Assembly (NCBI GenBank): GCA_030407315.1
Contig: JALQPE010000162.1
Coordinates: 1-29,439, forward strand
Direction: 5' to 3'
DNA from: Asparagopsis taxiformis
Taxonomy: Eukaryota > Rhodophyta > Florideophyceae > Bonnemaisoniales > Bonnemaisoniaceae
Length of the DNA stretch: 29,439 nucleotides
Each line of letters begins with the position of its first letter. The first letter of the stretch is position 1. The position numbers and the translations under genes were made by a program. The notes under the pieces are model-generated. The model was given only the letters and a program-made list of their open reading frames with translations, was not told the DNA's origin and made no database searches. Below are positions 1 to 27,781 of the stretch, piece by piece.

Positions 1-2178
1 CGCTGGGGGCACTGGAAATATACTTCTCAAGCGGAAATCCGGACAAGCTGCCAGCGTATTTTGACACCCTCGACGAAGACGTTATGGCTGTCCTCCGCCC
101 GGCACCACAAGCCGCGGACGCAGAAAAGGTCCCCAAGCCGGTTGATGACACTCCCACTCGTCGCAACACAGGAGGGAGTTTTTGGTTCCGTCGACAAGAC
201 ACACAACCAGGCTTCAACTTGGACCTGGGAGGACCAGTCTTACTGCCCAAGGGCCGTCTCCCCGTCACCGTCACCCCATGCGACAGAAGAGCAGGAAAGT
301 GAAGGGCAGGCTCTCGCAAAGGACTTTCTTTCGAAAATGAGTCAGTATTGCCGGGTGTACGACGTCCCTTTCGAAGATTTGGTCAGTGCCGACGAGAGCC
401 GAGAACACGTGCCCATCACGGGCAACGTTCAGCTCATTCTGACTGATCCGCCCTACAATGTTCGTCGTAAGAGGAACGATTCCAACTCTTCGTACGACAG
501 GCTAACTGCAGAAGATATGCAGGCTAGCATCGAAGTGTTTGACGAGCTGTTGCGCCCCGGTGGCCACGGCATCGTGTTCTGCTCGGTTTTGCAGTTCTAC
601 GAATGGTTCCATTACTTGGAAACGTACAAAGGACCGCAGTCAGAAGGCCCAACCGATACTGCTGCCAGTGATGACGGGTCGGATGAAGAAGAGGTTACGT
701 CCATGAATTCGGACTCCGAAGCATCGCAGCACAGTGGCGAAGAAAGTGCGGATGAGGAGGAGGACGAGGAGGAGGAGGACGTCGTTCGGAATTCAGTTTT
801 CTTCGTTGACGAGGTACCTCTGTTGTTTGTCCGACTACCTGGGCACCTCTATCAAATGCCGGGGCGGAAGAGGTACCAACGCATGAACATGGCAGAGGTC
901 GCTATCCACTTCTGGAAGCGAGGTGTTCCGTTCAAGACCGGAAGCGAGATGGTGGCCTATAGGAACCACGGATACATGGACGGCACGTACCCGGCGTGGT
1001 GCAACGTCACCATCAATATGCCCGCCATCGATTCGAATGAGATGGTGTGGCGAACAAGGAGCACAACCGGTGCTACGGTCAGAGTTCGTGCAGAGCAGAA
1101 GAGCGTCGCTCTCATGATGGAGTTGATCAGCCAGCATTCACAGCCTGGTGATATTGTTGTCGATCCATTCTCTGGCACTTTCGCAACGGGAAAAGCAGCT
1201 ATGAGCTTGCCTGAGCACCGTGTTTTCGTCGGCAGTGACATGGACAAATTGTGTGTGGTACGATCGCTTCCAAAGCTGTGTGCAGTCATGTCACGTGTAA
1301 TTCTTTCAAACAACACTGACATGAGGGTCACGACAGAAGCGAAACAGAGTGCTGAGAAGTTCTTGGCGTCCCCCTCTGTCACGATGCGTACGCAGAGGGA
1401 ACGCAGGATCATCGAACCCCCACCTGGCCTTCCCCTGTACCAGAGGTTCCCGAAATATATTCGGCAGTACCTCTGGCAGCTGTGCCCAGAGTCGATTGCG
1501 TCGCGCGAGCACATGGAGAAACCGGTACATTATTGGCCACCTTCCCTGCGCCGCTGGTTGCAAACTGAAAACCCTCGCGTGATGCGGGCACACGATTGTG
1601 TTGCGAAAAAATTGAGCGTTCGACCATCGCTGATTAAGCATCCAAATGCAGGAAGAGGGCTCTTCGCTGAACAGACATTTAATGTTGGTGACGAAGTATG
1701 TGCATACTACGGAACTGTTGTGTACTCTGATATGAGCAAGGAGTCGATGAGGTTCGCGTACGGAGAGGGTCACATGGCGATAACGAAGGAAACATTCTTG
1801 ATGTATGCTATCAAGCTGTATGCAACAGCGGAGGACGACGAAAACATCGAGCATCCAATTTGGATTGTTCCGGCTCCGTTCTGTTCGGCGCAGTTCATCA
1901 ACGACCCGCGGTATTTGCGAGGTGAGGACACTCCGGCGGAAGACACCAGGCGGATGGCCAACGTCGAGTTTGTCGAGAACTACAGCAGCGGTTCGACGGG
2001 GAAGAAGCTCAAGGCGAAGGACCTAGAAAATCCGAAGATCATTGTAGTACGTGCAATCCGCGATATCCGTCCGGGCAGGAGCTCTACGTTCATTATGGGA
2101 CAGCGTTTAGAGCATGGAATTAGGGTCACGAAAGATGTTTTCATTTCGACTACAAATAAAGCTACGTTCCAGAGTTGA
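1..2178 (+). CDS. DNA methyltransferase (beta-order N4C/N6A type) fused to a SET-domain protein methyltransferase; 5' end outside window, 3' end frameshifted
   Basis: The first half is an amino-methyltransferase of the DNA N4-cytosine/N6-adenine class. Catalytic motif DPPY (nt 445-456) precedes the AdoMet-binding motif DPFSG (nt 1162-1176), which is the beta-group order. A long acidic Glu/Asp insertion (about nt 680-785) separates them. The second half is a SET domain, with GRGLFA (nt 1651-1668), FIND (nt 1894-1905) and NVEFVEN (nt 1960-1980), so it probably methylates a histone or other protein lysine. The terminal SET motif is out of frame (see 2071-2123). The frame is open to the window edge. 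The first in-frame ATG is at 145, but the other frame from nt 3 to 302 reads more like protein, so the true N-terminus probably lies upstream and a second shift is likely near 240-300. The target base and histone residue cannot be read from sequence. The gene is followed directly by repeat array 1. Confidence 0.72.
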   Translation, partial: RWGHWKYTSQAEIRTSCQRILTPSTKTLWLSSARHHKPRTQKRSPSRLMTLPLVATQEGVFGSVDKTHNQASTWTWEDQSYCPRAVSPSPSPHATEEQESEGQALAKDFLSKMSQYCRVYDVPFEDLVSADESREHVPITGNVQLILTDPPYNVRRKRNDSNSSYDRLTAEDMQASIEVFDELLRPGGHGIVFCSVLQFYEWFHYLETYKGPQSEGPTDTAASDDGSDEEEVTSMNSDSEASQHSGEESADEEEDEEEEDVVRNSVFFVDEVPLLFVRLPGHLYQMPGRKRYQRMNMAEVAIHFWKRGVPFKTGSEMVAYRNHGYMDGTYPAWCNVTINMPAIDSNEMVWRTRSTTGATVRVRAEQKSVALMMELISQHSQPGDIVVDPFSGTFATGKAAMSLPEHRVFVGSDMDKLCVVRSLPKLCAVMSRVILSNNTDMRVTTEAKQSAEKFLASPSVTMRTQRERRIIEPPPGLPLYQRFPKYIRQYLWQLCPESIASREHMEKPVHYWPPSLRRWLQTENPRVMRAHDCVAKKLSVRPSLIKHPNAGRGLFAEQTFNVGDEVCAYYGTVVYSDMSKESMRFAYGEGHMAITKETFLMYAIKLYATAEDDENIEHPIWIVPAPFCSAQFINDPRYLRGEDTPAEDTRRMANVEFVENYSSGSTGKKLKAKDLENPKIIVVRAIRDIRPGRSSTFIMGQRLEHGIRVTKDVFISTTNKATFQS
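2071..2123 (+). other. One-base frameshift displacing the SET C-terminal motif
   Basis: In the main frame the end of the SET domain reads DIRPGRSSTFIMG, which has no family match. Starting at GGG 2073-2075, the -1 frame reads GQELYVHYG. That is the expected SET motif with the conserved catalytic tyrosine, and it meets a TAG stop at 2121-2123 soon after. The simplest reading is loss of one base in the C/G run at 2071-2075. No typical slippery heptamer is present and the overlap is too short for an intron. Sequencing error is possible. Confidence 0.75.
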
Positions 2179-2340
2179 AGTATATCATATAATGCAGAAT
2201 GTCCAGCCACCATTAGTCCAGGGTGAAACCTATTCGGCAGTACTCGCCTGTCAAAAACCAATCGTTCACACTCTAGGTGCACTTCGTCCGAGCAGTGAAC
2301 CTGACTGCTTGGTTGCTGTTATGCGTGCAGATGCAAAATA

Positions 2341-3440
2341 CAAGACCAAGTTGAAATGGACGCCCGGTGGATGTCCAGCTCAGTTGCATTGCTGTCCAGC
2401 CCAGAAATTCTACAATTCAGGGCAGAAAAAATATTGCAAAAAACATCGATTTCAGCGGGTCGATTGTGCCGTACGGCACACCCCCATCTCAAAAACATGT
2501 TCACATGTGCATGTTTTTGAGAATAGCCCAAATTTTAATTCAAATCAGGGTGTCTAATTTGGCCACAACGGCCCCAGGAACCGACCGCCGCCCCGAGTGG
2601 GGTTGTCACTGGCTTCTGTAAGCACTAACTGTAAGGCTAAATGGCGTCTGACAAAGGGTCAATTTCAGGCTCAATACGCCAGGGACAGGTCTTGGTCCTT
2701 GTTCCATCATGGTCCCACCCCACTCTCTCACGACCAACCTGAAATGCACGTCCGGTGGATGTCCAGCTCGATTGCACTGCTGGCCAGCCCGGAAATTCTA
2801 AAATTTCGGGCACAAAAAAATTGTAAAAAATCAACGATTTCAGCGGGTCGTTTGTGCCGTACGGCACACCCCCATTTCAAAAACATGTTCACATGTGCAT
2901 GTTTTTGAGAATAGCCCAAATTTTAATTCAAATCAGGGTGTCTAATTTGGCCACAACGGCCCCAGGAACCGGCCGCCGCCCCGAGCGGGGTCATCACTGG
3001 CTTCTGTAAGCACTAACTGTGAGGCTAAATGGCGCCGGAAGATGGGCCGATTGCAGGCTTCAAGCCTAAGTTATGCTAGGGAGAAATCTTCTTCCGTGTT
3101 TCATCATGGTCCCGCCTTACTCCCTCAACAGAAACACTACTCACCCATCACGTTACTCATATTCCGTGCACTTTATATTAGTAGTGAACCCGCCTGCTTA
3201 GTTGCTGCAATGCGTGGATGTAGGCAGCACACGACCAACCTGAAATGGACGTCCGGTGGACGTCCATCTCAGATGCACTGCTGGCCAGCCCAGAAATTCT
3301 AAAATTTCGGGCACAAAAAATCTTGCAAAAATCAACGATTTGGGCGGGTCGATTGTGCCGTACGGCACACCCCCATCTCAAAAACATGTTCACATGTGCA
3401 TGTTTTTGAGAATAGCCCAAATTTTAACTCAAATCAGGGT
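2341..3440 (+). repeat. Repeat array 1: three tandem hairpin-rich units (A, B, C)
   Basis: There are three imperfect copies of one non-coding unit. Each has a TGGACGTCC-GGT-GGATGTCCA-type inverted repeat (mutated in some copies), a short A/T stretch, then the perfect 14-bp palindrome GTGCCGTACGGCAC (2466-2479, 2854-2867, 3355-3368). After an 8-nt gap comes a hairpin with arms CTCAAAAACATG and CATGTTTTTGAG around a 10-nt loop (2488-2521, about 2876-2909 with one arm mismatch, 3377-3410). The conserved tail includes CAAATCAGGGTGTCTAATTT. The palindromes are 388 and 501 bp apart. Sequence at about 2290-2340, just upstream, resembles the leader of unit C, so the repeat may begin close to the end of the methyltransferase gene. 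Short apparent reading frames here are by-products of the repeats. Confidence 0.93.
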
Positions 3441-3785
3441 GTTCCCCGGATAAAGGGGTGCTCGCAGCCGCCCAAAACCCGCCTAGCTTGACAGCTGTAA
3501 TTTTAACACATTACACATCAAGGACACTGCCTGCTTCACGCCACCTCGTCAGGTTTCGAGAGCCCGACTCGGGCCCGTTCTGAACGGACACTCACATCTC
3601 GATTGCCTGTCTTGCATTCCAGCGGTCACGATAGGTGTGTACCTAACAAAATTTCGGTTGTATTGTGTTATTATTTCCAGCGATTGGCGTTCACGACCAT
3701 TCTTCAACTTAACGTGAAACATACCATCCACATCACTCGAATACGTCAACGTCAACCATCTCTTTTCCTTTCCAACTCAACAACC
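3441..3785 (+). promoter_or_regulatory. Presumed promoter and 5' untranslated region of the ParB/dioxygenase gene
   Basis: This is unique sequence between array 1 and the start codon at 3786. The array breaks off at about 3440, where the conserved tail GGGTGTCTAATTTGG is replaced by unrelated sequence starting GTTCCCCGG. The reading frame is open upstream to 3603 but without an ATG, and composition becomes A/T-rich and C-rich from about 3640, as expected of a leader. I see no convincing TATA box. Promoter assignment rests on position only. Confidence 0.35.
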
Positions 3786-6700
3786 ATGGCGGATACGCAT
3801 TTCAGCAGTTTGTTTTCAACGGTTTGCGGCGATCAAGTGAGCGCGTCAGCGGAGTCGCGCGGACTCAAGCGCGGCGTCGATGTCGACTTGTTTGCGGACG
3901 TGGACGGTGCGGCTGTGCATATTGGGACGGCTTCGGTGAGCACTGCTGGTGGCGATGTTGGCCTTCCGCGCACGCTGCACAACCACAAGCTGCCGGAAAC
4001 CGACGAGGCCGACTATATCGTCGTGCGCAACATTGCGACTAAGGACAAGTTCAAGGACCTCCCGTTCCCGTACATGTTTGATGGCGCCGAGGGACCGCCG
4101 GAGACGATGGGTGGAGCATACGCCGCGGCGTTTTACCCTTGGGATACTCGGATGATGCGCCCCGCTGCGGAGGATGGCTCTAGCGACATTCGTACCCCTG
4201 CTGCAGCGTCAAACTTCAACGCAGCGACGAACCAGGCCAGCTCGGGACGGATGCCCAGTACCGGTCCAGCAGGCGAAATCACTGGTTCGGGGGGTACGAA
4301 GCATCCAGGACGCTCCGTCCCGGTTTCGGGAGGCACGAAGCGCCCTGCTCGCTCTGCCAGAGCCTCCAGTGGAGGCACGAAGCACCCTGCTCGCTCCAAC
4401 GTCACCGAAGCTACTACGCAGGACGTAACCGAGGTGGACGACGAACCGGAGGTGGCGGAAAGCATTCGTGAGCAGCAGGGGACGCAAATTATGGTGCCCA
4501 AGTTTGTGACGTCGGATTACGTCGGAGAAGGAGCGACTGTGTTGGTGAGGCAGCTAGTGGAACCGGCCGTGACCCTTCGCGATGTCAAAGAAGACCACGT
4601 GGAGGACCTGCGCAACAATATGTTGGCGGTGGGGTATGTGAGCTCTTCGCGTATCACTGTGACGGTGCTGAGGTCGCAGAACACGCATTTGTCCGCCGAC
4701 ACGCGTCTGTTCCAGAATGGCAAATTCCATGCCAATGCGAACGTGACCGTGATCGACGGACTGCATCGTCTCAATGCTATGCATAGCATTGCGGATGACT
4801 TCACGCGCCTCACCCGTATGCACAGAACCAAGCTGCCACAGGAGGCAAACCGCTTGCGCTGGGTTACTCAGCCTCTGGATGTGTACTACCTTCGCCGCAA
4901 GGACGACAGTGATCTCCAGCCTCATGAGATCATCCACAAGAGTGCAGAGTCGAACCATACGACTGGGACGCAACTGACGGAGCGCTCCCTGGTTCGAATC
5001 TTGTCGTCCATCCAGCAGTTCATCCGTACGATTGCTGTTGCAAACAACGTGGAAAACGCTGGCGACTTGCGTGAGTCTGATGTCATCCGAACATTGTTCG
5101 AGGCGCAGTTCATGGGGATGATGAATTCGACGAACACGGCTCGGCGGTGGACGCGTTTGGCTATAGCAACGCTGAAGCATCCTGTTCTCGACGACGTGTT
5201 GCGTGAGCTGAACAATTCCGAGCGCCGCAACGAGATTGGGATAACGCACCTGGACCACAAGATAGTGCGCGAGTTGCTGGAAGAAAACTTTGTCTTCGTC
5301 TTGCGTGGTCTTTCGGAGTACTTGAACCCTGCTCATGGCGGACGTCCGGATGGACGCTTTGACGTGAACGACTTTTATACATACGTCCGTCGCGTGACTG
5401 CAATAGCAAATTCTCTGTACGCTGCGTTTGGGCGCCCAAAGAGTATTATGCGCAAGTCATTTCTGAGCACAGAGATGGCAATTGGGTCGGTTAAGCAGCC
5501 GAAGGAGTTGCAATGGCATCTCACCAATGCCATTGCAATGTATAGAGGGGACGACCGGAGCAGTGAGGTTCGAATGCGACGGAGAACCACGCGTTTACAG
5601 GATTTGGAAACGAACTTGAAAGAGTTTTTCAATCCGACATTGAAGAAGAAGACTAAGGCTCGACGCAAACGCCGCCCTTCTGCTGCCAATGTGAGACTCA
5701 CTCACAAGAAGCAGCGGAATGTCGAACATGAGCCTGCTTCGCATGGCATCCGCCGCCGTTCACAGCGACTTCGCTCGACGGGGAGCACACGCCTCGAGGA
5801 AGAAGAGCCGGTTGTGGTACAACAATCCGCCGGGGAAGAAGAGCAGGCCGTTGTTGATAAACCCACCGATCAACAACAAGCCACTGCTTCCGGTGATGAG
5901 GTTGACGAAGACTCCGCCCGTTCCCCCGATTCTGCCGTTGAGATTGTCCCCCAAGATAACCAACGTGCTGGTGCGACTCCCTCCAACCAAGAATCTGTCC
6001 ATACCGCTTCGGACGAGGAAGACAAACAGGGTGCAGACGAGGGCCAAGTCGAAAGCAAGGGGGTCCGCGAAGTGACAATTACATTCACTGTTCCGGAAGG
6101 AGTGGAAGTCGATGAAGACGGTTACATCGTTCGTGACTCTCCTTCTGAAGACGACCTCCTCTTCGACGACCGTATGCCGTCTCTTCCTGACGATTTCGAA
6201 GACCGAGCCGAAGGGCATCATCTGGCGCAGCGTCCCGCGGATGTCATCGCATCGGTGAGGGTTGGCTGTCTGCCCCCGATTGAGCTCAGGTTGTTATTGG
6301 AGAGTGTGGAAATCGATGAGGAGGGCAGAGAGGTGAGGTATTTGAAGCAAGTGGCGATGGACCCTGTGTTTGAGGGGCTGCATATTCCGGAAGAACATCG
6401 GGCTCGTGTGCTATTCGAAATCGATCACGTCTATCCGATGTTCTTCGCAGCGTGGAAGATGGCTGCCAAGGCGATGTGTGAGCCTACATCGACGTTTCTA
6501 CCCTCGAGGCTGGACTTTGCCCAGGTTGCGCGAATGTCTACAAGCTGGAAGGATTCGTATGAGGCCGGCACTGGTATGGCGTACTTCCACAATTGCCGAA
6601 CGGAAATCAACGAGCGAGGGTATACGGTGATGCACAATTTCGCGGATGTAAGCTACCTCGATGCGTCGGACAAGTTCCCCTTTGACTTGGGTCTCATGGA

Positions 6701-7718
6701 AGAAATTCCTAACCAGGAATTGTTTCGGTACTTCTTGGGAACATGGGAGGGGGAGCAGGTGCACAAGGACCCTGGGAACCGGCAGCTGTGGAGTCCCATT
6801 GTCAATACAGGGGACGATGAAACAGATGAGAAGAACCGGAATGAGGGGAGGGCTCGCTTCACGTCTACACGCCAGTGCCTGGTTGACTATGCAGAGAACG
6901 ACGAGACGCATATCGACCGGTTCAAGTTTGTGACGCGGCGAGCCCTACTGGATGTGTGGTTGGGAATCCTTGTCCGGCTGATAGGGCTGGAGGAGTGCGG
7001 TTTACCGGGAGAAAAACTTGTCATGCCGGCATCTGGGGGACGGTTTTTGATAACGGGAAAGGGGTGTCCTCGGCAGGTCCCACACAATGATTTCCCTGTT
7101 CCTCCTCGCGACCGCAAAGATCAACTTCCGGGTTACTTTGTTATTGCCAACGGAGATGACCCATTCCCTATCTGGGTGTGTCCAGGGTCCCACAAGTACG
7201 TCTTTTCCAAAGCGCTGGAATTAGATATGTACGCCAAGACGATGAAGCTGAAGAAGGTAATCGTTCCGCCACGTTCAGTCTTCATCGGTCACGGCCATGT
7301 ACAACATGCCGGGGCAGGGCATGTCGACAGAGTTGTGTCACACACGACAACGAGGTATCACACGTATTTCAGGAATGCGTCGTATCCGATTCCCGACAAT
7401 GTTTCGTTTGGTTTCATCAGGCGGTTGGGATTCGAAGAAGAAGTCATCGCCAATGCTCCGCGCCGGTCTGCAAGGCAAAGTCAACCGGCACCTGTCAATG
7501 TTCGCCACAAGACAGTTGTTCCCATCCCGGTCAAGAAAGATGGTAGGCCGAAGACAGGGCAGCTCCGAATGATGCGGATGAAGACGACAGAACCTCGCAA
7601 GGATGTAATGCACACACCGAGTGTGGCCCCGGTAGTGCCTCTTCTGCCGGGACAACCTGGATATCTAGTTCACTATCATAGTGAGGACGAAGAGGAAGAA
7701 CAGTTTTCCGACGGCTAG
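3786..7718 (+). CDS. 1310-residue protein with a ParB-like N-terminal domain and a 2OG-Fe(II) dioxygenase-like C-terminal domain
   Basis: The start is ATG 3786 in the context CAACCATGG; 61 upstream in-frame codons contain no ATG. Residues about 167-205 hold three copies of an SGGTK(H/R)P(G/A)RS motif, a likely flexible linker. Residues about 250-400 resemble ParB/Srx domains, with a VIDGLHRLNAM motif (D about 324) and a later SAESNHTTGTQLTE segment. Residues about 618-645 are strongly basic (KKKTKARRKRR), a probable nuclear localisation signal, followed by a long acidic region. The C-terminal part has a PhyH-type double-stranded beta-helix pattern: HxD in QVPHNDFP (His 1100, Asp 1102), a WVCPGSH segment, distal histidines in GHGHVQHAG (1169-1174) and a downstream arginine near 1189. 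This supports a 2-oxoglutarate/iron oxygenase, but the substrate is unknown. The frame is unbroken for 3.9 kb, unlike the other element genes here, and it lies between two near-identical repeat arrays. Confidence 0.8.
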   Translation: MADTHFSSLFSTVCGDQVSASAESRGLKRGVDVDLFADVDGAAVHIGTASVSTAGGDVGLPRTLHNHKLPETDEADYIVVRNIATKDKFKDLPFPYMFDGAEGPPETMGGAYAAAFYPWDTRMMRPAAEDGSSDIRTPAAASNFNAATNQASSGRMPSTGPAGEITGSGGTKHPGRSVPVSGGTKRPARSARASSGGTKHPARSNVTEATTQDVTEVDDEPEVAESIREQQGTQIMVPKFVTSDYVGEGATVLVRQLVEPAVTLRDVKEDHVEDLRNNMLAVGYVSSSRITVTVLRSQNTHLSADTRLFQNGKFHANANVTVIDGLHRLNAMHSIADDFTRLTRMHRTKLPQEANRLRWVTQPLDVYYLRRKDDSDLQPHEIIHKSAESNHTTGTQLTERSLVRILSSIQQFIRTIAVANNVENAGDLRESDVIRTLFEAQFMGMMNSTNTARRWTRLAIATLKHPVLDDVLRELNNSERRNEIGITHLDHKIVRELLEENFVFVLRGLSEYLNPAHGGRPDGRFDVNDFYTYVRRVTAIANSLYAAFGRPKSIMRKSFLSTEMAIGSVKQPKELQWHLTNAIAMYRGDDRSSEVRMRRRTTRLQDLETNLKEFFNPTLKKKTKARRKRRPSAANVRLTHKKQRNVEHEPASHGIRRRSQRLRSTGSTRLEEEEPVVVQQSAGEEEQAVVDKPTDQQQATASGDEVDEDSARSPDSAVEIVPQDNQRAGATPSNQESVHTASDEEDKQGADEGQVESKGVREVTITFTVPEGVEVDEDGYIVRDSPSEDDLLFDDRMPSLPDDFEDRAEGHHLAQRPADVIASVRVGCLPPIELRLLLESVEIDEEGREVRYLKQVAMDPVFEGLHIPEEHRARVLFEIDHVYPMFFAAWKMAAKAMCEPTSTFLPSRLDFAQVARMSTSWKDSYEAGTGMAYFHNCRTEINERGYTVMHNFADVSYLDASDKFPFDLGLMEEIPNQELFRYFLGTWEGEQVHKDPGNRQLWSPIVNTGDDETDEKNRNEGRARFTSTRQCLVDYAENDETHIDRFKFVTRRALLDVWLGILVRLIGLEECGLPGEKLVMPASGGRFLITGKGCPRQVPHNDFPVPPRDRKDQLPGYFVIANGDDPFPIWVCPGSHKYVFSKALELDMYAKTMKLKKVIVPPRSVFIGHGHVQHAGAGHVDRVVSHTTTRYHTYFRNASYPIPDNVSFGFIRRLGFEEEVIANAPRRSARQSQPAPVNVRHKTVVPIPVKKDGRPKTGQLRMMRMKTTEPRKDVMHTPSVAPVVPLLPGQPGYLVHYHSEDEEEEQFSDG

Positions 7719-7989
7719 ATATCTTAACAACAACTACTTTAGCAAACAATTATCGAGAATATAATCATCTCCTTTATCACTTTCAATCTATGAACCTACT
7801 ATAATGCACTTCCGTTCCATGCTTTCAAACTAGATTGTCCATTCCCTAGTGGGTTGGAGCATGATTCCAGGACGATTCCCTCACATCTCTAGACTCGATG
7901 GTCTATGCTAGAAATAGCAGAACAATTGGGTTTATACGTGCTTCATCGCCAACTTGCTTCTGGTAATGGCTGGACGTGCACGATACACG

Positions 7990-9170
7990 ATCACCTGAAA
8001 TGGACGTCCGGTGGATGTCCAACTCAGATGCATTCCTGGCCGGCCCAGAAATTCTACAATTTCGGGCACAAAAAAATATTGCAAAAAACATCGATTTGGG
8101 CGGTCGATTGTGCCGTACGGCACACCCCCATCTCAAAAACATGTTCACATGTGCATGTTTTTGAGAATAGCCCAAATTTTAATTCAAATCAGGGTGTCTA
8201 ATTTGGCCACAACGGCCCCAGGCACCGGCCACCGGCCCCGATCGGGGCTATCACTGGCTTCTGTAAGCACCAACTGTAAGGCTAAATGGCGTCTGACGAA
8301 GGGTCAATTTCAGGCTCAATACGCCAGGGACAGGTCTTGGTCCTTGTTCCATCATGGTCCCGCCCCGCTCTCTCACGACCAACCTGAAATGGACGTCCGG
8401 TGGATGTCCAGCTCGATTGCATTGCTGGCCAGCCCAGAAATTCTAAAATTTCGGGCACAGAAAAATATTGCAAAAAACATCGATTTGGGCGGTCGATTGT
8501 GCCGTACGGCACACCCCCATCTCAAAAACATGTTCACATGTGCATGTTTTTGAGAATAGCCCAAATTTTAATTCAAATCAGGGTGTCTAATTTGGCCACA
8601 ACGGCCCCAGGAACCGACCGCCGCCCCGAGCGGGGTCATCACTGGCTTCTGTAAGCACTAACTGTGAGGCTAAATGGCGCCGAAAGATGGGTCGATTCCA
8701 GGCTTCAAGCCTAAGTTATGCTAGGTACGCATCTTCTTCCGTGTTTCATAATGGTCCCGCCTTACTCCCTCAACACAAACACTACTCACCTATCACGTTA
8801 CTCATATTCCGTGTACTTTGTATTAGTAGTGAACCCGCTGGCTTAGTTTCTGCAATGCGTGGATGTAGGCAGCACACGACCAACCTGAAATGGACGTCCG
8901 GTGGATGTCCAGCTCAGATGCACTGCTGGCCAGCCCAGAAATTCTAAAATTTCGGGCACAAAAAATCTTGCAAAAATCAACGATTTGGGCGGTCGATTGT
9001 GCCGTACGGCACACCCCCATCTCAAAAACATGTTCACATGTGCATGTTTTTGAGAATAGCCCAAATTTTAATTCAAATCAGGGTGTCTAATTTGGCCACA
9101 ACGGCCCCAGGAACCGACCGCCGGCCCCGATCGGGGGCTATCACTGGCGTCTGTAAGCACCAACTGTAAG
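7990..9170 (+). repeat. Repeat array 2: three hairpin-rich units (D, E, F), a direct repeat of array 1
   Basis: The units match A, B and C in order, including inter-unit sequence. GTGCCGTACGGCAC lies at 8110-8123, 8499-8512 and 8999-9012. The 12-bp-arm hairpins lie at 8132-8165, 8521-8554 and 9021-9054. Palindrome spacing is 389 and 500 bp, against 388 and 501 in array 1, and corresponding palindromes are offset by 5644-5645 bp. Unit-specific variants are shared (A and D both have ATTCTACAATT; C and F share the longer leader), so the whole block was copied at once. Unit D carries a further perfect palindrome GCCCCGATCGGGGC at 8235-8248. All units keep the same orientation. Confidence 0.93.
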
Positions 9171-9405
9171 CCGGAGCCGGCTGCCGCCCCGATCGGGGCT
9201 ATCACTGGCTTCTATTAGCACCAACTGTAAGCCAAAATCGCGTCTCACGAAGGGTCGATTTCAGGCTCAACACGTCAGGGAAAGGTCTTGGTCCTTGTTT
9301 CATCATGGTCCCGCCCCACCCTCTCGCGACCAACCTGAAATGGACGTCCGGTGGATGTCCAGCTCGATTGCATTGCTGGCCAGCCCAGAAATTCTAAAAT
9401 TTCCG
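9171..9405 (+). repeat. Truncated seventh repeat unit (G) and duplicated unit spacer
   Basis: After unit F the spacer segment (CCCCGATCGGGG, TATCACTGGC, GTAAGC) occurs twice in tandem. It is followed by a unit leader matching the start of units B and E, up to CAGAAATTCTAAAATTT at about 9405. The 14-bp palindrome and 12-bp-arm hairpin are missing. The break marks an edge of the repeat-bearing element or a deletion. Confidence 0.85.
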
Positions 9406-10735
9406 AAAAATCAATTTGGTGGCCCAGCATCTCCTGTGCCGAAAATTCCCGCACTCAGTTCTGATATACGTCTAGACGTGTTTCCCACTTGTACGCATCA
9501 GGGAAGGCGTCACGGAAGGTTGACACTACGCTACTTGTGTACCGCGTCGTCTGAAATAGCGAGTAGTGTTTGTTGTATAGTTGTGGAGTATGCGTCTAGT
9601 GGTTTGTAAAGCTTGCAGAACGGGATAGGGATGTGGGTGGCCCTATTTTATGAATACATGAGTACCAATATTCAGGGTTGACAAAGCGGAGAGGCATAGG
9701 CTCATACATGTTTGAGATTGCATAGTAGAGAAAATATTTTCATCGAAATTTACATGGAGCTGATGGAGGTTTTAAGGATGAGGTATGAGAGGAAGAAAAT
9801 TCTTCTGTGGTATGAGGATGTGTTCTGTGGGGGGATGGAATCTTGGGATGGTACAGGGGGAGGTGGAAATGTACGGAGTGCGGGTTTAGAATGGATTGTG
9901 ATTCGGAGAGGAGTGCCGACAAGCATATTATGGGGATTGGGGAGACGCTGCGGGGTGTTGGGGTAGTGAGGGCGGAGGAGGTGTTTAGGTGGGACCGTAG
10001 GAGGGTGCGGTTGAAGGCGCCGAGAGGAGGGGTTTTTAGGAAAGTGAGGAGAAAGAAGGGGAGGGGGTGGCGTCTGTTCTGGCTGTGGTGAGTGGGGATG
10101 TGATGGAGAAGAAGGGGGTTATTGTATTTGGGGAGGGAGGGGAGTGGGAGGAAGGGTGCGAAGTGGGGGGTTGATATGTGTTTCAGAGCGGGGAGGTTTC
10201 TGGGGATACGGCGGGGGAGCCACCCCGCAGTGCGGGAGCGTGGGCCGGTGGTGGTGGTGTATACGGTATCGAAGATGCGGATGGCGTGGGGGCATGGAGC
10301 AGCTGAGGGAGGGAGGGGTGGAGCAGGTCGGGTACGGGATGGGGAGTGAGAGGTTTTGGAAGAGTAAGCTGCAGGGGAAGTTTGTGTAGAGGGCGAAGGA
10401 GAGGGGTTGAGGGTAGAGGAGAGAGGGTACTGAAGAACAATACGTTTCAAAGGTGATGGGGGAGAGCATGGTCGAGGAGATAGGGGGTGTTTTGCCCTAT
10501 TCTGAGGTAGTATGAGGACTGGTTATACGAAATCTGTACGGTAGAGCAGAAAAGTAGGTATGGAATGGAGGTGTGCACCGTGGAAGCGGGGATAGGTATC
10601 TGAAAATGCGTGCTAGAGTGGTATTGGGGGTGTTTGAGGTACAGTACGGGGGAGGTGAGCACCAACAGGAAGGGGGTGTGAGCGAGAGGATGAAAAAATT
10701 AAAGACGAAATTGGAGTCGACCGACAAGGAAAAAT
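9406..10735. other. Strand-asymmetric G-rich tract, no convincing gene
   Basis: From about 9760 to 10730 the plus strand is rich in G and poor in C, with many GGG and GGGG runs. A compact G-quadruplex-type cluster is at 10130-10148 (GGGG-A-GGG-A-GGGG-AGT-GGG). Several overlapping frames stay open on both strands because of this bias. The longest, on the minus strand (9740-10450), encodes only a Pro/Ser/Thr/His-rich low-complexity product and I do not accept it as a gene. A plus-strand stretch near 9865-9935 contains CTECGF followed by a later His, weakly like a zinc finger. Confidence 0.6.
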
Positions 10736-10739
10736 AGAG

Positions 10740-11035
10740 TGGTCGCCGTGATGGATGCGGACATCCATGTCGAGCACGGCGGCAGAAATTTCTGGGGTCG
10801 AAATTTTTGAATTTCTGAACCGGCGCCCGTCCTAGGTGGACATAGACATGGCGGAAGTCCATCCCGAGGGGGACATCCGTGGTACTAGAAACAATGAATG
10901 TCGCCCTAGTAATACTAGACGTACTAGACCGCATGGACGTCCGGTTCTAGGCGGACATCCAAAAATACTGGAGAACATGGACGTCCGCCTAGTAATACTA
11001 GGTGTACTAGAGGTTGTGGACGTCCGCGTCCATTT
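10740..11035. repeat. GGACGTCC/CTAGTA hairpin cluster
   Basis: This is a dense set of short inverted repeats. ATGGATG-CGGA-CATCCAT lies near 10752, GGACGTCC pairs with GGACATCC-type arms near 10932-10962, and there are further GGACGTCC copies near 10980 and 11016. Two copies of the near-palindrome CTAGTAATACTAG lie at 10906-10918 and 10989-11001, each followed a few bases later by a TGTACTAG or CGTACTAG variant. The GGACGTCC arms resemble those opening each unit of arrays 1 and 2, but the rest of the unit is absent, so a common origin is only suggested. Confidence 0.7.
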
Positions 11036-11611
11036 CCGAGAACACAGACGTAAGCGTTTAGCGAATCGCGAGGACCGATTGCGTTGAAACATTGCGTGCG
11101 GGTTGCTCACGATCGCCGACGTTCGCGTGCGCGCTGCGCGTAAACCGATCGTCGAACTGCGTCGCACCGCGATAGCGCGCGTTGCGTCGCACGCCACCAG
11201 GCCAGGGATTTACGACCCCTGTGTGGATCGCGTTGTGCTCGAGTTTACTCGGTGATCTCACCCTGAGATCACGGCTTGCGCCGGCCCGCGAATCCCGTGT
11301 TGCGATCGTTCCCTACGCGTTCCGCCGTTGTACCACCCGTTCGCCAGCGCGACCGAGCGACGCGCGAACGCAAGTTCAACCAGCGCGTTACGGTTCACCT
11401 CGCCCTGACACGGCTGCAATTCTAGAACTCCCTTAGCGATCGCCACACCGGCTGGTCCTACATCTAGGTCTTCCGACTCTTCGGTATCGCTGGAAGAGAA
11501 TTGAAAAATTCAAAGTGTAGCTCCTGGTATGATAAAAAGCGGAGATAAACATACAAGACAAGAAAAAAATCCGACTGCTTTCCATCAAGTCTCCAACTGA
11601 GAAGAGCATCA
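11036..11611. other. CpG-dense stretch upstream of the transposase pseudogene
   Basis: From about 11040 to 11400 the sequence is crowded with CpG (for example GCGTGCGCGCTGCGCG and CGCGATAGCGCGCGTTGCG), far above its surroundings. It then turns A/T-rich from about 11490. Frames on both strands stay open without recognisable domains. It could be a promoter-like CpG-rich segment, the terminal region of an element, or remnant coding DNA of foreign composition. Confidence 0.45.
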
Positions 11612-13497
11612 ATGTTACGCAAACTTGAATCGCCTTCATTCTCTTTCAGCTCAGCCCCATGTTGTAAGAGGAGCTGTATAACGGATGCTGATCACGAGTT
11701 CCTGTCGACACAAGTCCAAAAGGCTCTTCAGATGAGCCAAGAAGAACGCCGGAATTATCTTTCGAGAATGATGCATGGAACCAAGAGGAAACATTTCCAA
11801 TTCAATGAGAAAAGAGTTTGTACACAATTTCTCGTAGAAATGTTTGGATTCTCACGCTACCTGATATGCTCGGTCAAGGGAATTCACCGGAGTTTTGTAA
11901 GGCGGGAAAGACCAAATGAGTCTGGGGGTACGAGAGTCAACCACCAAGATAAGATCTTAACCTTTCTAAGTCGCCTCGCAGATAATACTGCTGAAAGAAT
12001 GCCTGACAACACCGAATTCCACCGGTCATTTATTGAAAAGAAACAAGTCAAACTGAGATTCCTTGATGAATGCAAGATTCTGTACCGAGATAATCTTCCG
12101 TCGCAAAGCTACTTCCTCCGCATATGGAAGCATCAACTACCCGAGATAAAGGTCAGAAAGCAAACCCGTTTCACAATATGCCATGACTTTGAGACCCTAA
12201 GGTCTGCGTTACATTCAGCCGGTACTGACGTAGCTAGAGCCGCAGCATTCCGAAAGAAGAAAACAGAACACCAAAAGATGATAAGGAGAGAAAGACAAGA
12301 GTACTCCCGTAAATTTGAGGAGTCTCAACTATATCCTGAGCAGTTCATGTCTGTTATTGTGTATGGAGCTGATCAGAGTGCTTTTGGCCTACCTCACTTT
12401 ACCTTCTCCACGAAAAACACCTCTGGGCATTCAATTAAGATCAAACTCGTTGGAGTATTGGAGCATGGTAGCTCCAAAAGCTTGTCTCTTTATGTCATGA
12501 CCGAATAATTTGAGACAGCTTCCAACCACATTGATGAAGCTATCCACCGCACACTACAGGAGAAATCTTTGGCTACTCCGAAATTCCCTCCTGTTCTGTA
12601 CATCCAGCTTGACAACTGCGTAAGGGAGAACAAAAATAGAAAAACCCTTACGTATTTGGAGTGCCTTGTTGCATGGGGTGTGTTTGCAGAAGTCCAGGCA
12701 TCTTTTCTTCCCATTGGACACACCCACGCTGATATTGATCAAACTTTCAGCTGTACGTCTGGCAGATTAAAACCCCATGACTCTATCACTCTGCCAGATC
12801 TAATGAAAGAACTGAAGCTTTCTTACACACCTTCCCCAACTGTTACAGAGATGACATCTTCAAATTCAATCGTGCTGCATTTCAACATTCTCATGATGTA
12901 TCTTCATCTACATCTAGACCTGGTAGCAATCTCAGTCAAGGCTCCTCATGCTTCTAAACGAATTGCACTGTGAAAATGACTTGTGACGCGGAATGGATTC
13001 CGCTTTGGGAACGAGACGAAAATGCAGGATTTCTCCAGCAGGTTTCGGACTTGAGTGAAACTCCTCCTACAAATTCTGTTTCTCCGACCAACTATGATCA
13101 GGTGACTAAGCGATTCATTTCAGAACAAGGGAGGATAAACAATACTTCAAAGATGAATTCAATTTTCAAATTGAGAGACACAGTATATGAAACTCGGTTG
13201 AATCCCTTCCACTGGGACCTAAGTGATTGTTTCGAGCTCAATTTCAATCGTCGCACCGATAATGACGATGAGTGGAACAAAATCAATTGTGAAGAGGACA
13301 TCGAATATCTCGATACAACAGGAGAATTTCAACACCAAGACTTGGAGTACGAGCCAAACGCTTTTGTGGCTGTGAAACGATCTGAGGGGTCCGATGAAAT
13401 GCCTTTCTGGTTGGCAAAAATCCAAACCGTTCTTACTGATGATAGCGGCAAAACCATAGCGCTGGAAGTTCATTGGTGGGAATTGAAGAGAGGATAG
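11612..13497 (+). pseudogene. Decayed DDE-type transposase (family with LQLDNC...ENKNR...GHTHxDIDQ, often labelled DUF7869-like)
   Basis: An opening frame of 298 codons carries an N-terminal domain (FGFSRYLICSVKGIHRSF) and the first acidic motif, YGADQSAFGLPHF. A TAA at 12506-12508 interrupts it, but the same frame continues with family-like sequence (FETASNHIDEAIH), then IQLDNC, ENKNR and GHTHADIDQTF, which carry the other acidic residues expected of an RNase H-like DDE/DDD fold. Near 12820-12840 the likely frame shifts (CYRDDIFKFNRAAF continues in another frame). That frame has a second stop, TAA 12955-12957, before a C-terminal part to 13497 with the typical PFWLAKI...VHWWEL module. Two stops and one shift make an inactive relic. 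Splicing out the stops is less likely, since sequence on both sides of the first stop is continuous with the family pattern. The family name is from memory. Confidence 0.65.
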
Positions 13498-16518: not shown

Positions 16519-18616
16519 CTAGTAAAAAGGACTTTCGTAGGAAAGATCGTGACACATCTCGACATGTTTTTTGAAGCAATCGCGACCAGTCTGATGGTGA
16601 CAGATAAAGACATCCTTTTGGTATAATCGTTTGCAAGTAGAGCATACGAACTTCGACTTCTTTGTTCCCTTGCAAATATCGCAGGGACCTTGATAGATAG
16701 CATTGCTATCCCTTCCATTGGAAGTCCTGCGAGTTCGAGTAGTCGGTGTCCAATGAGTTCCAATGCCACTACCGCTCTCCATCTCTTCCATATCAGGTGC
16801 ATCTGATTCTCGCTGACGTAATCCAATTGCATCCATGGAGTTGTCAATCAATCCTTCAGTCAATTTAGTATATAACTGATGAAGTGTCATCCTGCCCCTG
16901 TTATGCATGGCCCCACAGTACAGCTTCCAGACATCCAAGACGCATATGGCAAAAAGTGACGTGTTGACACGTGCCGACCATTCCTTGACTTCATATTTCT
17001 TCTCCAGCATAAGGCCGTCTTGGCGACATCGGTTGTGACGGTCAACCTGAGAGCAAGTCGCATAATAGGTCTCACATACTTGTGGGATCGGAATATCAAT
17101 TTCCTCCTTCCATGTCCTGCCATTCCTGCTTCGATAACGCCCTCGGAATATTGGCGTCCCAGGCTGAGTAGTACCAGCTGTACTAATAAAGTACCTTCTA
17201 TCACGGTCGATCCACATCACTGCCATCAGATCAGGACCATACTTATCTTTAGCAACCATAGACACGTGTTCACCCTTTCCCGAGATCTCCAAGTGTGACA
17301 GATGCTGAAGCGGGTATCCCTTTGTGGCATTCTTGACGAAACCAGTGAAACGTAGTCCATGCTTTAAGAGTATTTCTGCCGTTTCAACAGAGTGAAAGAA
17401 TGAATCAGCACACCTCGAGGCGATGTGTATAAAACCATGGCTCGACGAGCCTTAATGTGATGGCAGCACCATGCGTCGTTTCGGACTCGAATGCTTTTCC
17501 ACGTCTCTCCTCGGCTGAAATCACCACATCCATCCTTAGAATGATTCCACTATTGCCACATGATTCAGTTTTAAGCTCACATCCATTCTCGGGCTTACGG
17601 TCCATTGCAACGTAATGTGGGAGTCCGATGTCGATCCAGTCACCTCCCAGACCATACCACCTTGACATACTCTCATCGACACATATCTAATCGGAAGGGA
17701 ATACCTGAGAGCTTCTGTGGTCATTGATGGCGGTGATGAACCTAGATATGACACCCCACCGGTCAGTTTCGTCACAAACCTTGGAGTAAGTCACGTACTG
17801 TCTCAGCTCTTCAAACCGTTTGCGTGACATAATGTGTCCTGACATTGGTGCGGGGATATATTTAGTCCGAGACGGACTAATCCAGAGTGAGCGCCTCCCA
17901 CTGAACTCAAATCGTGACATGAGTACAATGACTCCAAAACACTTCAAAATCTCTCCCAGCAAGGTAGGTTTGAGATTCCGCTTTTCCAGCTCAAAATTGG
18001 AGTATGAGATTAGTGCTCAAAAATCCCATTGGAAACATCCACTGAAAATAGTCATACGGTGTCATATCTGATGGTCTTTGCCATTCAGATATTATCTCAT
18101 CCAATGTACCAATCACCTTCCAGGGCCGAGTGGGGGCCATCCATTCATTTGCATTGATACACCAGACACAGTCCATTCCACGTCATCGCAGATGACAATT
18201 GGCTCACCGGTTGACTCAGTGTCACATGGCATAGTATTAACACTCGTACTCATGTCACGTTCTTGCGGCGTGACTGCATCTGATTTTTCGGCCTCATTCT
18301 CGTCACTCCCTGTCTCTTGAGCTTGATCTCCTCCTTCTTTTACTTGTTCCTCTGTATCATCGGCAGGTGCCTTTACACTGCAGAGACGCAGGGCTGTCAC
18401 CTTGTTACCATCAGCCAGCTCCCACTCAGCCTCAATTGATGTCATCAATCGCTTTTTTCCTCTCTCTTTAATGACTCGAATGACAGTTCCGAATATCATC
18501 CTTGTCTTCCATCCGGCGACATACATCCTGCGACACTTGGAGATAGATTTCAGTTGTCTGGCAGGGGCGAGGACCCTGTTTCCGACAACTTGGCGACAAT
18601 CAAGTGGTTTCACCAT
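16519..18616 (-). pseudogene. PiggyBac transposase with C-terminal zinc-binding domain, copy 1, multiply broken
   Basis: The start is ATG at 18614-18616 (MVKPLDCRQVV). The N-terminal region is shared with copy 2. The PiggyBac core is recognisable as RFEFSGRRSLW...KYIPAPMSGHIMSRKRFEELR, then CVDESMSRWYG (first catalytic Asp region), ADSFFHSVETAEIL (second Asp) and QVDRHNRCRQD (third). The C-terminus has a Cys/His-rich domain, CDICKG through HVEMC. Breaks are a one-base deletion near 18135 relative to copy 2, a frameshift near 18005, an in-frame TAG at 17687-17689 just before the first catalytic motif, and a frameshift near 17420 just before the second. The final open part, from about 17420 to 16519, is intact. 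The catalytic assignments follow the known PiggyBac DDD pattern, and the protein cannot be made as one chain. Confidence 0.85.
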
Positions 18617-19279: not shown

Positions 19280-20829
19280 CTACTCCACATATTTCGTAAA
19301 AACAGTTGTACTATTGTGTCCACCAAATCCAAAAGAGTTCGAAATTGCAACATCAATGTCATGTTCTTGCATTTCATCCCGAACGATATCAATATCAACC
19401 TCGGGCTCAATATCCGTAACATTGATCGTAGGATGGATCTTCCCTGTCTGAAGAGCTTTAACTGTCACAACAGCCTCAAAACCAGAGGCAGCTCCCAATC
19501 CGTGACCAATCATCGATTTGGTACAATTCATTCTAATCTTACTCACATCACCATCGAAAACACTTCGAATAGCTCTGAATTCAGCGAGATCGCCCAGCAT
19601 AGTAGAAGTTGCATGTGCATTGATGTAGTTCACTCTGTCCTTCGACACTCCGGCATCCGCGAGGGCATTCGTAATGCAGTTCCTGACTCCCAGTCCATCT
19701 GGGCGAGGCTCGGTCATATGATAAGCATCGAATGTTTGGGCACCACCGATATATTCAGCAAGGATTGGAGCACCTCTTGCCAAAGCACTTTCAAGACTTT
19801 CCATAACCACAAAACCTGACCCTTCTCCCATTACAAATCCGTCCCTGTTCTTGTCCAGAGGTCGTGATGCTTGTTCACAATTTTCATTATTCGAAGACAA
19901 TGCATGACAGGCTATGAATCCACCAATCCCGGAGGGATTGGTAGCAGAATCACTACCACCGGCAAGGCAAATGTCGCATTCACCTCGGCGAATATGGAGA
20001 GCAGCATGGTTGATACTGTAGTTTCCAGCTGCACAAGCTGTTGCAATGCAGTAATTGGGACCCTTGAGATCACACTCTATCCCAACCATTGCTGCTGCCT
20101 GGAGAAAGGAAATCTCTGTCAAACGGTTAGAAATATTGGAATTGCCGCTCGAAGTACGTGAAAATCTCTTGAGTAGAGCGCTGAAGCAATAAGTGAAGGC
20201 CAACGTACCATATTGGAGATGGTGTACGGGATGAAGAAAGGTGAAATCTTTTTGTATCCAGAGTTCACAAGCTTGTCAATTCCTGCTTGCATTGCGGAAT
20301 GTCCAGCGACACCCGTACCACACAAGCAACCAATTTTGGACTTGTCAATGTTATTGAACGCCTCGGATCCGACTGCAATGCCAGCGTTCTCAAGTGCTTT
20401 TTTTCCGGCAACAATGGCATATGTAATGAAAGGATCCAAGCGCCGCAACAATTTCCGATTGACATACTTGCTGGCTTCAATTTGCTCCATGTCGACGGTA
20501 GCAGCAAAGTTTGTTGACCAGCCGCTAGTGTCGAAGCTAGTGATCTTTTTCACTCCGCTCTTTCCCTCCAGTAAAGATTGGTAGAATACATCTGAATCGG
20601 ATCCGAAACATGATGCAACACCAGTTCCAGTGACAACAACTCGCTTTACTTGTCCATGAGGAGAATCCCGTGTCAATGAAACCATACTGATTGTACTTCT
20701 GGATAAGGAGCGGGAAGCAGTCGCTGGAAGCGAGGAAGTAGGCGTCGATTGTCTTCCATTGGCCCAGGAGCTGTGTGTAGAGTTGAATACCGGCGCGCTC
20801 AGTACGAAAGCGGAGGATGGGACGGTCAT
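19280..20829 (-). CDS. fabF: Beta-ketoacyl-ACP synthase (KAS I/II, FabF type), two exons
   Basis: This condensing enzyme of type II fatty acid synthesis extends acyl-ACP with malonyl-ACP. Exons are 20829-20209 and 20098-19280. The intron (20099-20208, 110 bp, GTACGT...CTCCAG) is phase 0 and restores PYTISNM-AAAMVGIECDLKGPN. The product is 479 residues. The thiolase-fold catalytic triad is complete: Cys about 229 in IATACAAGN, His about 369 in INAHATST, His about 406 in MIGHGLGAASG. The C-terminal NSFGFGGHNSTTVF signature is present. About 60 Ser/Thr-rich residues precede VKRVVVTGTGVASCFG, longer than bacterial FabF, which suggests import into plastid or mitochondrion. The presequence starts MTVPSSAFVLSAPVF without an obvious long signal peptide, so a missed upstream exon is possible. 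The gene appears intact and is likely a normal host gene. Confidence 0.93.
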
Positions 20830-26923: not shown

Positions 26924-26941
26924 CTAGTGTCTATCGGACAA

Positions 26942-26961
26942 GTGGCCTCATATGAGGCCAC
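26942..26961. repeat. Perfect 20-bp palindrome at the end of PiggyBac copy 2
   Basis: GTGGCCTCATATGAGGCCAC is its own reverse complement. It sits just inside the terminal motif and matches the imperfect paired version in copy 1 at 18786-18825. It may be a transposase-binding or hairpin-forming subterminal site. Confidence 0.85.
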
Positions 26962-27781
26962 ATTTTACCACCCTAGTTTAAATTTAAAAAATAAACGATT
27001 AGCTCCAATTTTGCCACTAGAAGACTCGCCCGCGAGATTGATGGTGTGGCAGGGCAGAGTGAATGCTTACATTTTAATTCTCACGTCAGCAAACCACGAT
27101 AACTCCATTGCAATCCCGAAATCACAAAAAATGGTGAAACCACTTGATTGTCGCCAAGTTGTCGGAAACAGGGTCCTCTCCCCTGCCAGACAACTGAAAT
27201 ATATCTCCAAGTGTCGCAGGATGTATGGCGCCGGATGGAAGACAAGGATGATATCCGGAACTGTCATTCGAGTCATTAAAGAGAGAGGCAACAAGCGATT
27301 GATGACATCAATCGAGGCTGAGTGGGAGCTGGCTGATGGTCACAAGGTGACAGCCCTGCGTCTCTGCAGTGTCAAGGCACCTGCAGATGATACAGAGGAA
27401 AAAGTAACAGAAGGAGGAGATCAAGCTCAAGAGACTGGGAGTGACGAGAATGAGGCCGAAAAATCAGATGCAGTCACGCCGCAAGAACGTGACATGAGTA
27501 CGAGCGGTAATACTCTGCCATGTGGCACTGAGTCAACCAGTGAGCCAATTGTCATCTGCAATGACGTGGAATGGACCGTGTCTGACGTATCAATGCAAAT
27601 GAAAGGCTGGCGCCCCACTCGGCCGTGGAAGGTGATTGGTCCATAGGATGAGACAATATCTGAAGGGCACGGACCATCAGATATGACACCGTACGAATAT
27701 TTCCAGTGGATGTTTCCAATGGGATTTTTGAGCAGTATCGTCCAATACTCCAATTACGAGCTGGAAGAGCGGAATCTCAAA

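What the first reader, a model, noticed from the sequence alone, without database searches (positions are those of the whole stretch)
1..9405. Candidate undescribed element: DNA/histone methyltransferase gene, ParB-dioxygenase gene and paired palindrome arrays
Two large plus-strand genes alternate with two copies of one repeat array. One gene fuses a DNA methyltransferase with a SET domain. The other joins a ParB-like domain with a 2OG-Fe(II) dioxygenase-like domain. Together they hold functions that write DNA and histone marks, could bind or cluster on DNA, and could remove methyl groups, beside iterated palindromes that could be their target. I infer a selfish or mobile element that controls its own chromatin state or inheritance. 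No transposase or integrase is visible, and the left end is outside the window.
Basis: partly seen in the sequence, partly recalled or inferred. Interest (0 to 1): 0.88.

Follow-up and report, generated by a model that had tools for sequence, protein, structure and literature searches.

The report
Giant transposon carrying chromatin-marking genes
This is the right half of a jumping element of about 22.8 kilobases, with about 870 gene copies in what is very likely a red seaweed genome, that carries genes for a predicted DNA- and histone-methylating fusion enzyme and a predicted DNA-binding dioxygenase, which would likely mark the element's own chromatin and help it avoid being silenced.

Summary
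The genes and arrays are real, and the element is mobile. Window 1-11050 is the right half of a Plavaka-family DNA transposon of about 22.8 kb. The left half, outside the window, holds an intact Plavaka transposase and a coiled-coil protein. Terminal inverted repeats, 2-bp target duplications (3 of 4 copies) and an exact empty site (1 of 3 junctions tried) were found. Exact tags count 965 transposase, 811 methyltransferase and 869 ParB-dioxygenase copies, at most 13-16% of the assembly. Gene 1 is a beta-class (predicted N6-adenine) DNA methyltransferase fused to SET; the window copy is damaged, intact copies exist. Gene 2 joins a ParB-like domain to a PhyH-type dioxygenase fold and is under purifying selection. 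The arrays lie mainly in the element, vary in unit number, and have recombined: the methyltransferase gene is inverted relative to the window in 22 of 37 readable copies. Giant Plavaka elements, and Plavaka with TET/JBP dioxygenases, are known; this cargo pair was not found in the papers searched. Control of the element's own chromatin is inferred, not shown.

The parts
1..2127 (+). 3' two thirds of the DNA methyltransferase-SET gene (damaged copy; the 5' end lies outside the window). MTase domain about 307-1302 (DPPYN at 445), SET about 1651-2100; positions carried over from the intact copy, so approximate
   Evidence: 1065-aa copy in C2995, same full-length frame in C2167
2277..3442 (+). array B: three repeat units (388/501-nt spacing), each with GTGCCGTACGGCAC, a 36-nt inverted repeat and a GGACGTCC-like site
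   Evidence: one side of the methyltransferase-segment inversion
3786..7718 (+). ParB-like / 2OG-Fe(II) dioxygenase gene (1310 aa from the ATG at 3786; ORF listed from a TTG at 3603). ParB-like about 4515-4964 (motif DGLHR), dioxygenase about 6435-7397 (HND...HAG...RYH)
   Evidence: best 38 of 1,259 candidates all full length without gaps; purifying selection
7921..9403 (+). array C: three further units and a partial one of the same repeat, variable in number between copies
   Evidence: ParB tag-to-right-end distances fall into four classes near 3.0, 3.5, 3.95 and 4.45 kb
9404..11050 (+). right non-coding region, strongly G-rich strand at 9501-11000, ending in subterminal CTAGTA/GGACGTCC repeats (about 10883-11050)
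11004..11050 (-). right terminal inverted repeat (41 of 47 nt match the left end of copy C2995), element boundary at 11050/11051
   Evidence: 1,282 exact right-end 17-mers genome-wide, reversed control 0

Best explanation
Window 1-11050 is the right half of a Plavaka-family DNA transposon of about 22.8 kb, abundant in what is very likely a red seaweed genome, whose methyltransferase-SET and ParB-like-dioxygenase proteins are predicted to act on the element's own DNA and nucleosomes and would likely keep it transcribed instead of silenced. Shown: ends, 2-bp target duplications, an empty site, the transposase gene, copy number, gene linkage, selection on the ParB-dioxygenase gene, and array location and variability. 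Inferred: the Plavaka transposase moves the element by cut and paste. The ParB-like protein binds the palindromic arrays next to the cargo genes, or the GGACGTCC sites that arrays and ends share. The fused enzyme writes adenine methylation and a histone-lysine mark there. The dioxygenase oxidises an opposing mark. The net effect is anti-silencing, as proposed for TET/JBP-bearing fungal transposons. The direction (activating instead of self-repressing) is the least certain step.
Confidence: 0.5

Rival explanations
1. The writer marks the element to repress it: the transposon methylates itself and its nucleosomes to limit its own activity and damage to the host, and the dioxygenase resets the mark for bursts.
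For: A DNA methyltransferase fused to a SET domain would be expected to set, not erase, marks; 869 tag copies with near-identical genes suggest bursts.
Against: The recent burst (one substitution in all among seven transposase copies compared) suggests that repression is not effective. No expression or mark data.
Confidence: 0.2
2. The cargo serves transposition itself: adenine methylation and ParB binding at GGACGTCC sites in ends and arrays mark donor DNA, bring the ends together or time excision to replication.
For: GGACGTCC occurs in both ends and in the arrays: 13 in the element, 0 in the 18.4-kb flank. Adenine methylation controls some bacterial transposons (recalled).
Against: No binding or target-site evidence. 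Plavaka families without dioxygenase cargo were reconstructed in fungi (PMC12730594, section 20 read).
Confidence: 0.15
3. Passenger cargo: genes picked up from a host or virus and amplified with the element without benefiting it.
For: Transposons do capture genes; the methyltransferase frame is broken in the window copy and carries gap bases in two others.
Confidence: 0.1
4. The arrays and inversion form a phase switch: recombination between inverted arrays A and B flips the methyltransferase gene and so turns it on or off.
For: Both orientations are common: 15 same and 22 opposite among 37 pairs. In copy C236 both breakpoints lie in the repeat units.
Against: The unique stretch between array A and the gene flips with it, so no promoter is obviously exchanged. 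Six of the 38 top-ranked ParB copies could be read for orientation from tag lists and all six are 'same', which hints that orientation is inherited by lineage and not often switched; the sample is small.
Confidence: 0.05

Closest known systems
Plavaka DNA transposons (PF18759; PlavakaA/B of fungi, PMC12730594)
   Same: Plavaka transposase; TIRs; 2-bp target duplications; some fungal members carry a TET/JBP dioxygenase gene
   Different: About 22.8 kb, in a probable red alga; termini CGTCTGTG..CACAGACG instead of TGT..ACA or CATCA..TGATG; methyltransferase-SET and ParB-PhyH-like dioxygenase cargo; palindromic arrays
Giant Plavaka repeats of Amoebidium (PMC11244446, passages read) and giant Plavaka elements of the red alga Bostrychia (recalled; not in the library)
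   Different: The passages read describe tyrosine recombinase genes in the Amoebidium elements and do not mention MTase-SET or ParB-dioxygenase cargo
TET/JBP-bearing KDZ, EnSpm, Plavaka and other transposons of fungi (PMC12730594)
   Same: DNA transposon carrying a 2OG-Fe(II) dioxygenase proposed to counter silencing
   Different: Here the dioxygenase fold is PhyH-like and fused to a ParB-like domain, with an added DNA/histone writer
SET-bearing HarbingerS and MuDR transposons of Phytophthora (as cited in PMC12730594)
   Same: DNA transposon encoding a SET methyltransferase
   Different: Different transposase; SET is fused to an adenine-type DNA methyltransferase here
Bdelloid rotifer N4C methyltransferase (8s9m)
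   Different: Predicted base differs (DPPY motif here); here it is fused to SET and carried by a transposon

Membership tests
Plavaka transposon | Plavaka transposase domain | tested here: met
   PF18759 87.2 bits vs cut-off 26.3; 123 of 123 scored genome hits over cut-off (1,208 candidates), 0 of 14 control genomes
Plavaka transposon | terminal inverted repeats and 2-3 bp target duplication | tested here: met
   TIR 41 of 47; TSD in 3 of 4 copies, the fourth (C2995) shows none; empty site
PlavakaA or PlavakaB subgroups | termini 5'-TGT..ACA or 5'-CATCA..TGATG | tested here: not met
   termini CGTCTGTG..CACAGACG against PMC12730594 section 20
TET/JBP-bearing transposon | TET/JBP dioxygenase domain | tested here: inconclusive
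   none of the 11 family members matches a dioxygenase family of Pfam at E up to 5; the listed folds are PhyH-type and similar oxygenases
beta-class N6-adenine DNA methyltransferase | fold, DPPY and motif IV before motif I | tested here: met
beta-class N6-adenine DNA methyltransferase | methylates adenine | not testable with these tools
   needs assay or read kinetics
SET lysine methyltransferase | SET domain with terminal catalytic tyrosine | tested here: met
   PF00856 29.5 bits vs 22.4; E(L/F)xxxY end in 14 of 18 aligned rows; substrate unknown
ParB-like clamp protein | ParB/sulfiredoxin-type N-terminal fold | tested here: inconclusive
   DGxHR in 11 of 11; Foldseek BFVD ranks 1, 6 and 9 are ParB/Spo0J proteins, best E 6.9e-5, but low TM and aligned residues not printed; Pfam only weak (DndB 0.064, 2 of 11); not predicted alone
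ParB-like clamp protein | CTP-dependent loading at a parS-like palindrome | not testable with these tools
   palindromic arrays are present but no binding data
Starship giant transposon | tyrosine recombinase captain (DUF3435) | tested here: not met
   Pfam scans of the four element proteins gave a Plavaka transposase and no recombinase

The most novel reading that the evidence does not exclude
A eukaryotic DNA transposon with a self-contained epigenetic system: its own adenine-DNA and histone writer in one protein, and a ParB-type clamp that loads on its own parS-like palindromic arrays and carries an oxidising eraser, so that the element nucleates and maintains a heritable chromatin state over hundreds of copies.
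Probability: 0.15. Interest if true: 0.92.

Novelty: new variant of a known kind. Interest (0 to 1): 0.74.

Why it matters
If right, one element family equivalent to up to about one seventh of this genome carries both halves of an epigenetic tool kit, with candidate target sites inside it. It would extend transposon anti-silencing from one enzyme (TET/JBP, SET or VANC-like) to a linked writer and DNA-binding dioxygenase module. It would also bring a ParB-like fold, known from bacterial chromosome partition, into a eukaryotic transposon, and offer a testable reason why giant Plavaka elements can expand red algal genomes (that expansion is recalled). PacBio reads of the probable host exist, so the methylation prediction may be checkable without new sequencing.

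Tried and rejected
Retrotransposon or provirus: the ORFs beside copy C2995 that I read by eye as Ty3/gypsy-like (no family scan run) lie on the other strand and mostly outside the left TIR; they are the flank. Viral origin: IMG/VR scans with P0023 and A1 gave no relative. A2 gave one locus that reads as an ordinary phage-type methyltransferase. Starship: no recombinase. Dispersed host repeat: not supported, though 7 of 98 units lie near no element tag. Frequent phase switching: weak, see rivals. Rfam: no match in the window. PADLOC: for P0023, 34 families with generic Type II/III and orphan methyltransferase models on top; none for the other three proteins. A prokaryote scan with A1 could not be built. 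PDB sequence search with A1 gave one chance hit. The PDB fold lists for the two models are filled by one domain each, so absence of other families there means nothing. The N-terminal 450 residues of the methyltransferase protein and the coiled-coil protein stay unexplained. Whether the genome has cellular relatives of the two proteins could not be asked: the protein search of the own genome did not complete.
Full report
WHAT THE WINDOW IS. The window is contig C162 of a 141,494,207-base assembly in 3,156 contigs. The host is very likely a red alga: 11 of 13 phycobilisome hits sit on contig C469, with one gene repeated 177,170 bases apart as in an over-long circular plastid contig. These figures are close to the Asparagopsis taxiformis lineage 6 assembly, 142.472 Mb, 3,308 contigs, plastid 176,936 bp (PMC12115072, passages read). 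That identity is an inference from numbers.

ELEMENT ENDS. Copies of window 1-9405 exist elsewhere at 99-100% (11 of 3,660 candidates scored). In nine of ten copies scanned (the window included; C119 gave no match) the shared sequence stops at the same base, window 11050, and the following bases differ. The left end was found in 6 of 6 copies given. The left end of C2995 is the inverted repeat of the window's right end, 41 of 47 nt. The length of about 22,764 nt adds 11,714 nt measured left of window base 1 in copy C2995 to 11,050 nt in the window copy, so it comes from two copies; array length varies between copies. Of four copies with both flanks, three show a 2-bp target duplication (CA, TA, AA) and C2995 does not. 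Joining the two flanks of the C2167 copy with one CA found the empty site at 100% over 238 nt on C266 and at 99% on two other contigs, so the target is itself repeated. The same test for C1975 and a pattern for C2995 found none; C503 was not tried.

GENES. Left to right in the element: (1) an intact 1012-aa Plavaka transposase (PF18759, E 1.6e-24); (2) a 761-aa coiled-coil protein on the other strand, no family over its cut-off; (3) the methyltransferase-SET protein, 1065 aa; (4) the ParB-like-dioxygenase protein, 1310 aa from the ATG at 3786. The window starts inside gene 3. The window's gene 3 has 4 gap bases against the reference copy and its frame runs out before the SET end, so it is a damaged copy or carries assembly errors. 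Five copies show a frame with the SET end (C2995, C2167, C503, C1819, C2934). C1756 and C546 do not, and have 1 and 2 gap bases. Transposase copies C119 and C1975 have 4 and 1 gap bases.

ARRAYS. Array B (2277-3442) and array C (7921-9403) share 277-nt units at 388 and 501 nt spacing. Array A, upstream of gene 3, has the opposite orientation. The units hold GTGCCGTACGGCAC, an inverted repeat with TCAAAAACATG arms 10 nt apart and GGACGTCC-like sites; GGACGTCC also lies in both element ends (13 in the element, 0 in 18.4 kb of flank). Genome-wide the 22-mer around the palindrome occurs 7,470 times with 0 for the reversed control, about 8.6 per ParB-dioxygenase tag. Of the 100 places listed I used 98 (one on C7 and one on C45 were dropped): 72 lie within 8.5 kb of a gene tag, 91 if right ends are included, and 7, all on C39, near none. 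I gave the 68 of 100 listed ParB-dioxygenase tags on contigs up to C190: 54 have a right end within 6 kb, 14 do not. The 54 distances fall into classes near 3.0, 3.5, 3.95 and 4.45 kb (22, 12, 10 and 10 copies), which fits gain and loss of array units.

INVERSION. Reading listed tag positions in contigs C9-C256, 37 of 67 methyltransferase tags have a ParB-dioxygenase tag within 9.5 kb. It is downstream in 37 of 37, on the same strand in 15 and on the opposite strand in 22. In copy C236, where the gene is opposite to the window form, both breakpoints fall inside repeat units of arrays A and B. So the inverted arrays have recombined; which orientation is ancestral is not known, and one flipped copy was read. 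Six of the 38 top-scoring ParB-dioxygenase genes (C162, C119, C222, C213, C135, C326) could be read for orientation from the tag lists and all are in the window form. Six more (C546, C2934, C1819, C503, C2167, C1975) are too, but were found by a query that favours that form. This suggests inherited subfamilies and not frequent switching; the sample is small.

COPY NUMBER AND SELECTION. Exact tags: transposase 454+511, methyltransferase 393+418, ParB-dioxygenase 427+442, reversed controls 0; right ends 639+643. At full length 811-965 copies would be 18.5-22.0 Mb, 13.0-15.5% of the assembly; this is an upper figure because many copies are cut by contig ends or shortened. 51 of 97 transposase tags have neither cargo tag downstream, and 45 of 100 right ends have no ParB-dioxygenase tag within 6 kb, so shortened forms are common, contigs are short, or tags have mutated. 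The best 38 of 1,259 ParB-dioxygenase candidates were scored and are all full length and gapless. Among 7 compared copies, 13 of 18 variants are synonymous (p 1.7e-5, pN/pS 0.12). The transposase has 1 variant, the methyltransferase 4 (2 synonymous) and the coiled-coil gene 6 (0 synonymous), too few to judge. With an older copy and C2995 added, 29 of 45 ParB-dioxygenase variants are synonymous.

RELATIVES. 17 methyltransferase-SET relatives (one is 99% identical, the others 27-36%; 9 of 17 carry a precomputed SET annotation) and 10 ParB-dioxygenase relatives (36-49% over the part searched) were found in genomes and metagenomes without organism names. Two pairs list the same longest contig length, 15,726 (P0012, P0027) and 7,918 (P0015, P0028), so the pairing is probably conserved. 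I could not fetch those contigs.

LITERATURE. 'Plavaka' occurs in 11 papers of the library. PMC12730594 (abstract, passages and sections 20 and 26 read) describes TET/JBP cargo in fungal Plavaka and other transposons and gives Plavaka termini and TSDs. PMC11244446 (passages read) describes giant Plavaka-flanked repeats in Amoebidium. PMC12633428 (one passage) mentions EnSpm-Plavaka elements in a green alga. Searches for this cargo listed no paper that describes it, judging by titles and abstract beginnings; of those listed I read parts of PMC12730594 and PMC12633428. Giant Plavaka elements in Bostrychia are recalled; no such paper is among those that hold the term here. So the claim 'not in print' covers only this library and these searches.

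MECHANISM. The best reading is an anti-silencing module. The ParB-like domain would find arrays or shared GGACGTCC sites, the fused writer would mark adenines and histones, and the dioxygenase would oxidise an opposing mark. Only the anatomy, spread and selection are shown. Binding, chemistry and the sign of the effect are inferred.

Noticed in passing
window 9501-11000: Strong strand asymmetry (596 G to 189 C; skew up to 0.62) in the right non-coding part of the element; G-rich runs could form unusual DNA structures.
   Followed up: partly
window 11612-13497 (+): Broken-up ORFs, one with a DUF7869 domain (E 4.8e-36), probably another transposon close beside the right end.
   Followed up: partly
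window 19280-20829 (-): Beta-ketoacyl synthase gene in two overlapping ORFs, probably an intron-bearing or plastid-type FabF host gene.
   Followed up: partly
window 18113-18616 (-) and 26927-27646 (+): Two very similar ORFs on opposite strands (MVKPLDCRQVVGNRVL...), with a weak IS4-type transposase match at 16519-17292 (E 0.011, below cut-off): a second, unrelated repeat.
   Followed up: no
G000 contigs C11, C12, C14: Array units in mirrored order with an element right end but no listed ParB-dioxygenase tag: perhaps a related subfamily with other cargo between the arrays.
   Followed up: no
G000 C39:1209-15117: Seven array units near no gene tag or right end.
   Followed up: no
L014 (C2167:51000-60999): A second, more diverged and inverted copy a few kb beyond the right end of the C2167 copy (ParB-dioxygenase 98.3%, right region 95.4%).
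   Followed up: partly
L028:3391-3828: About ten 43-bp tandem repeats just inside the left end, likely transposase-binding subterminal repeats.
   Followed up: partly
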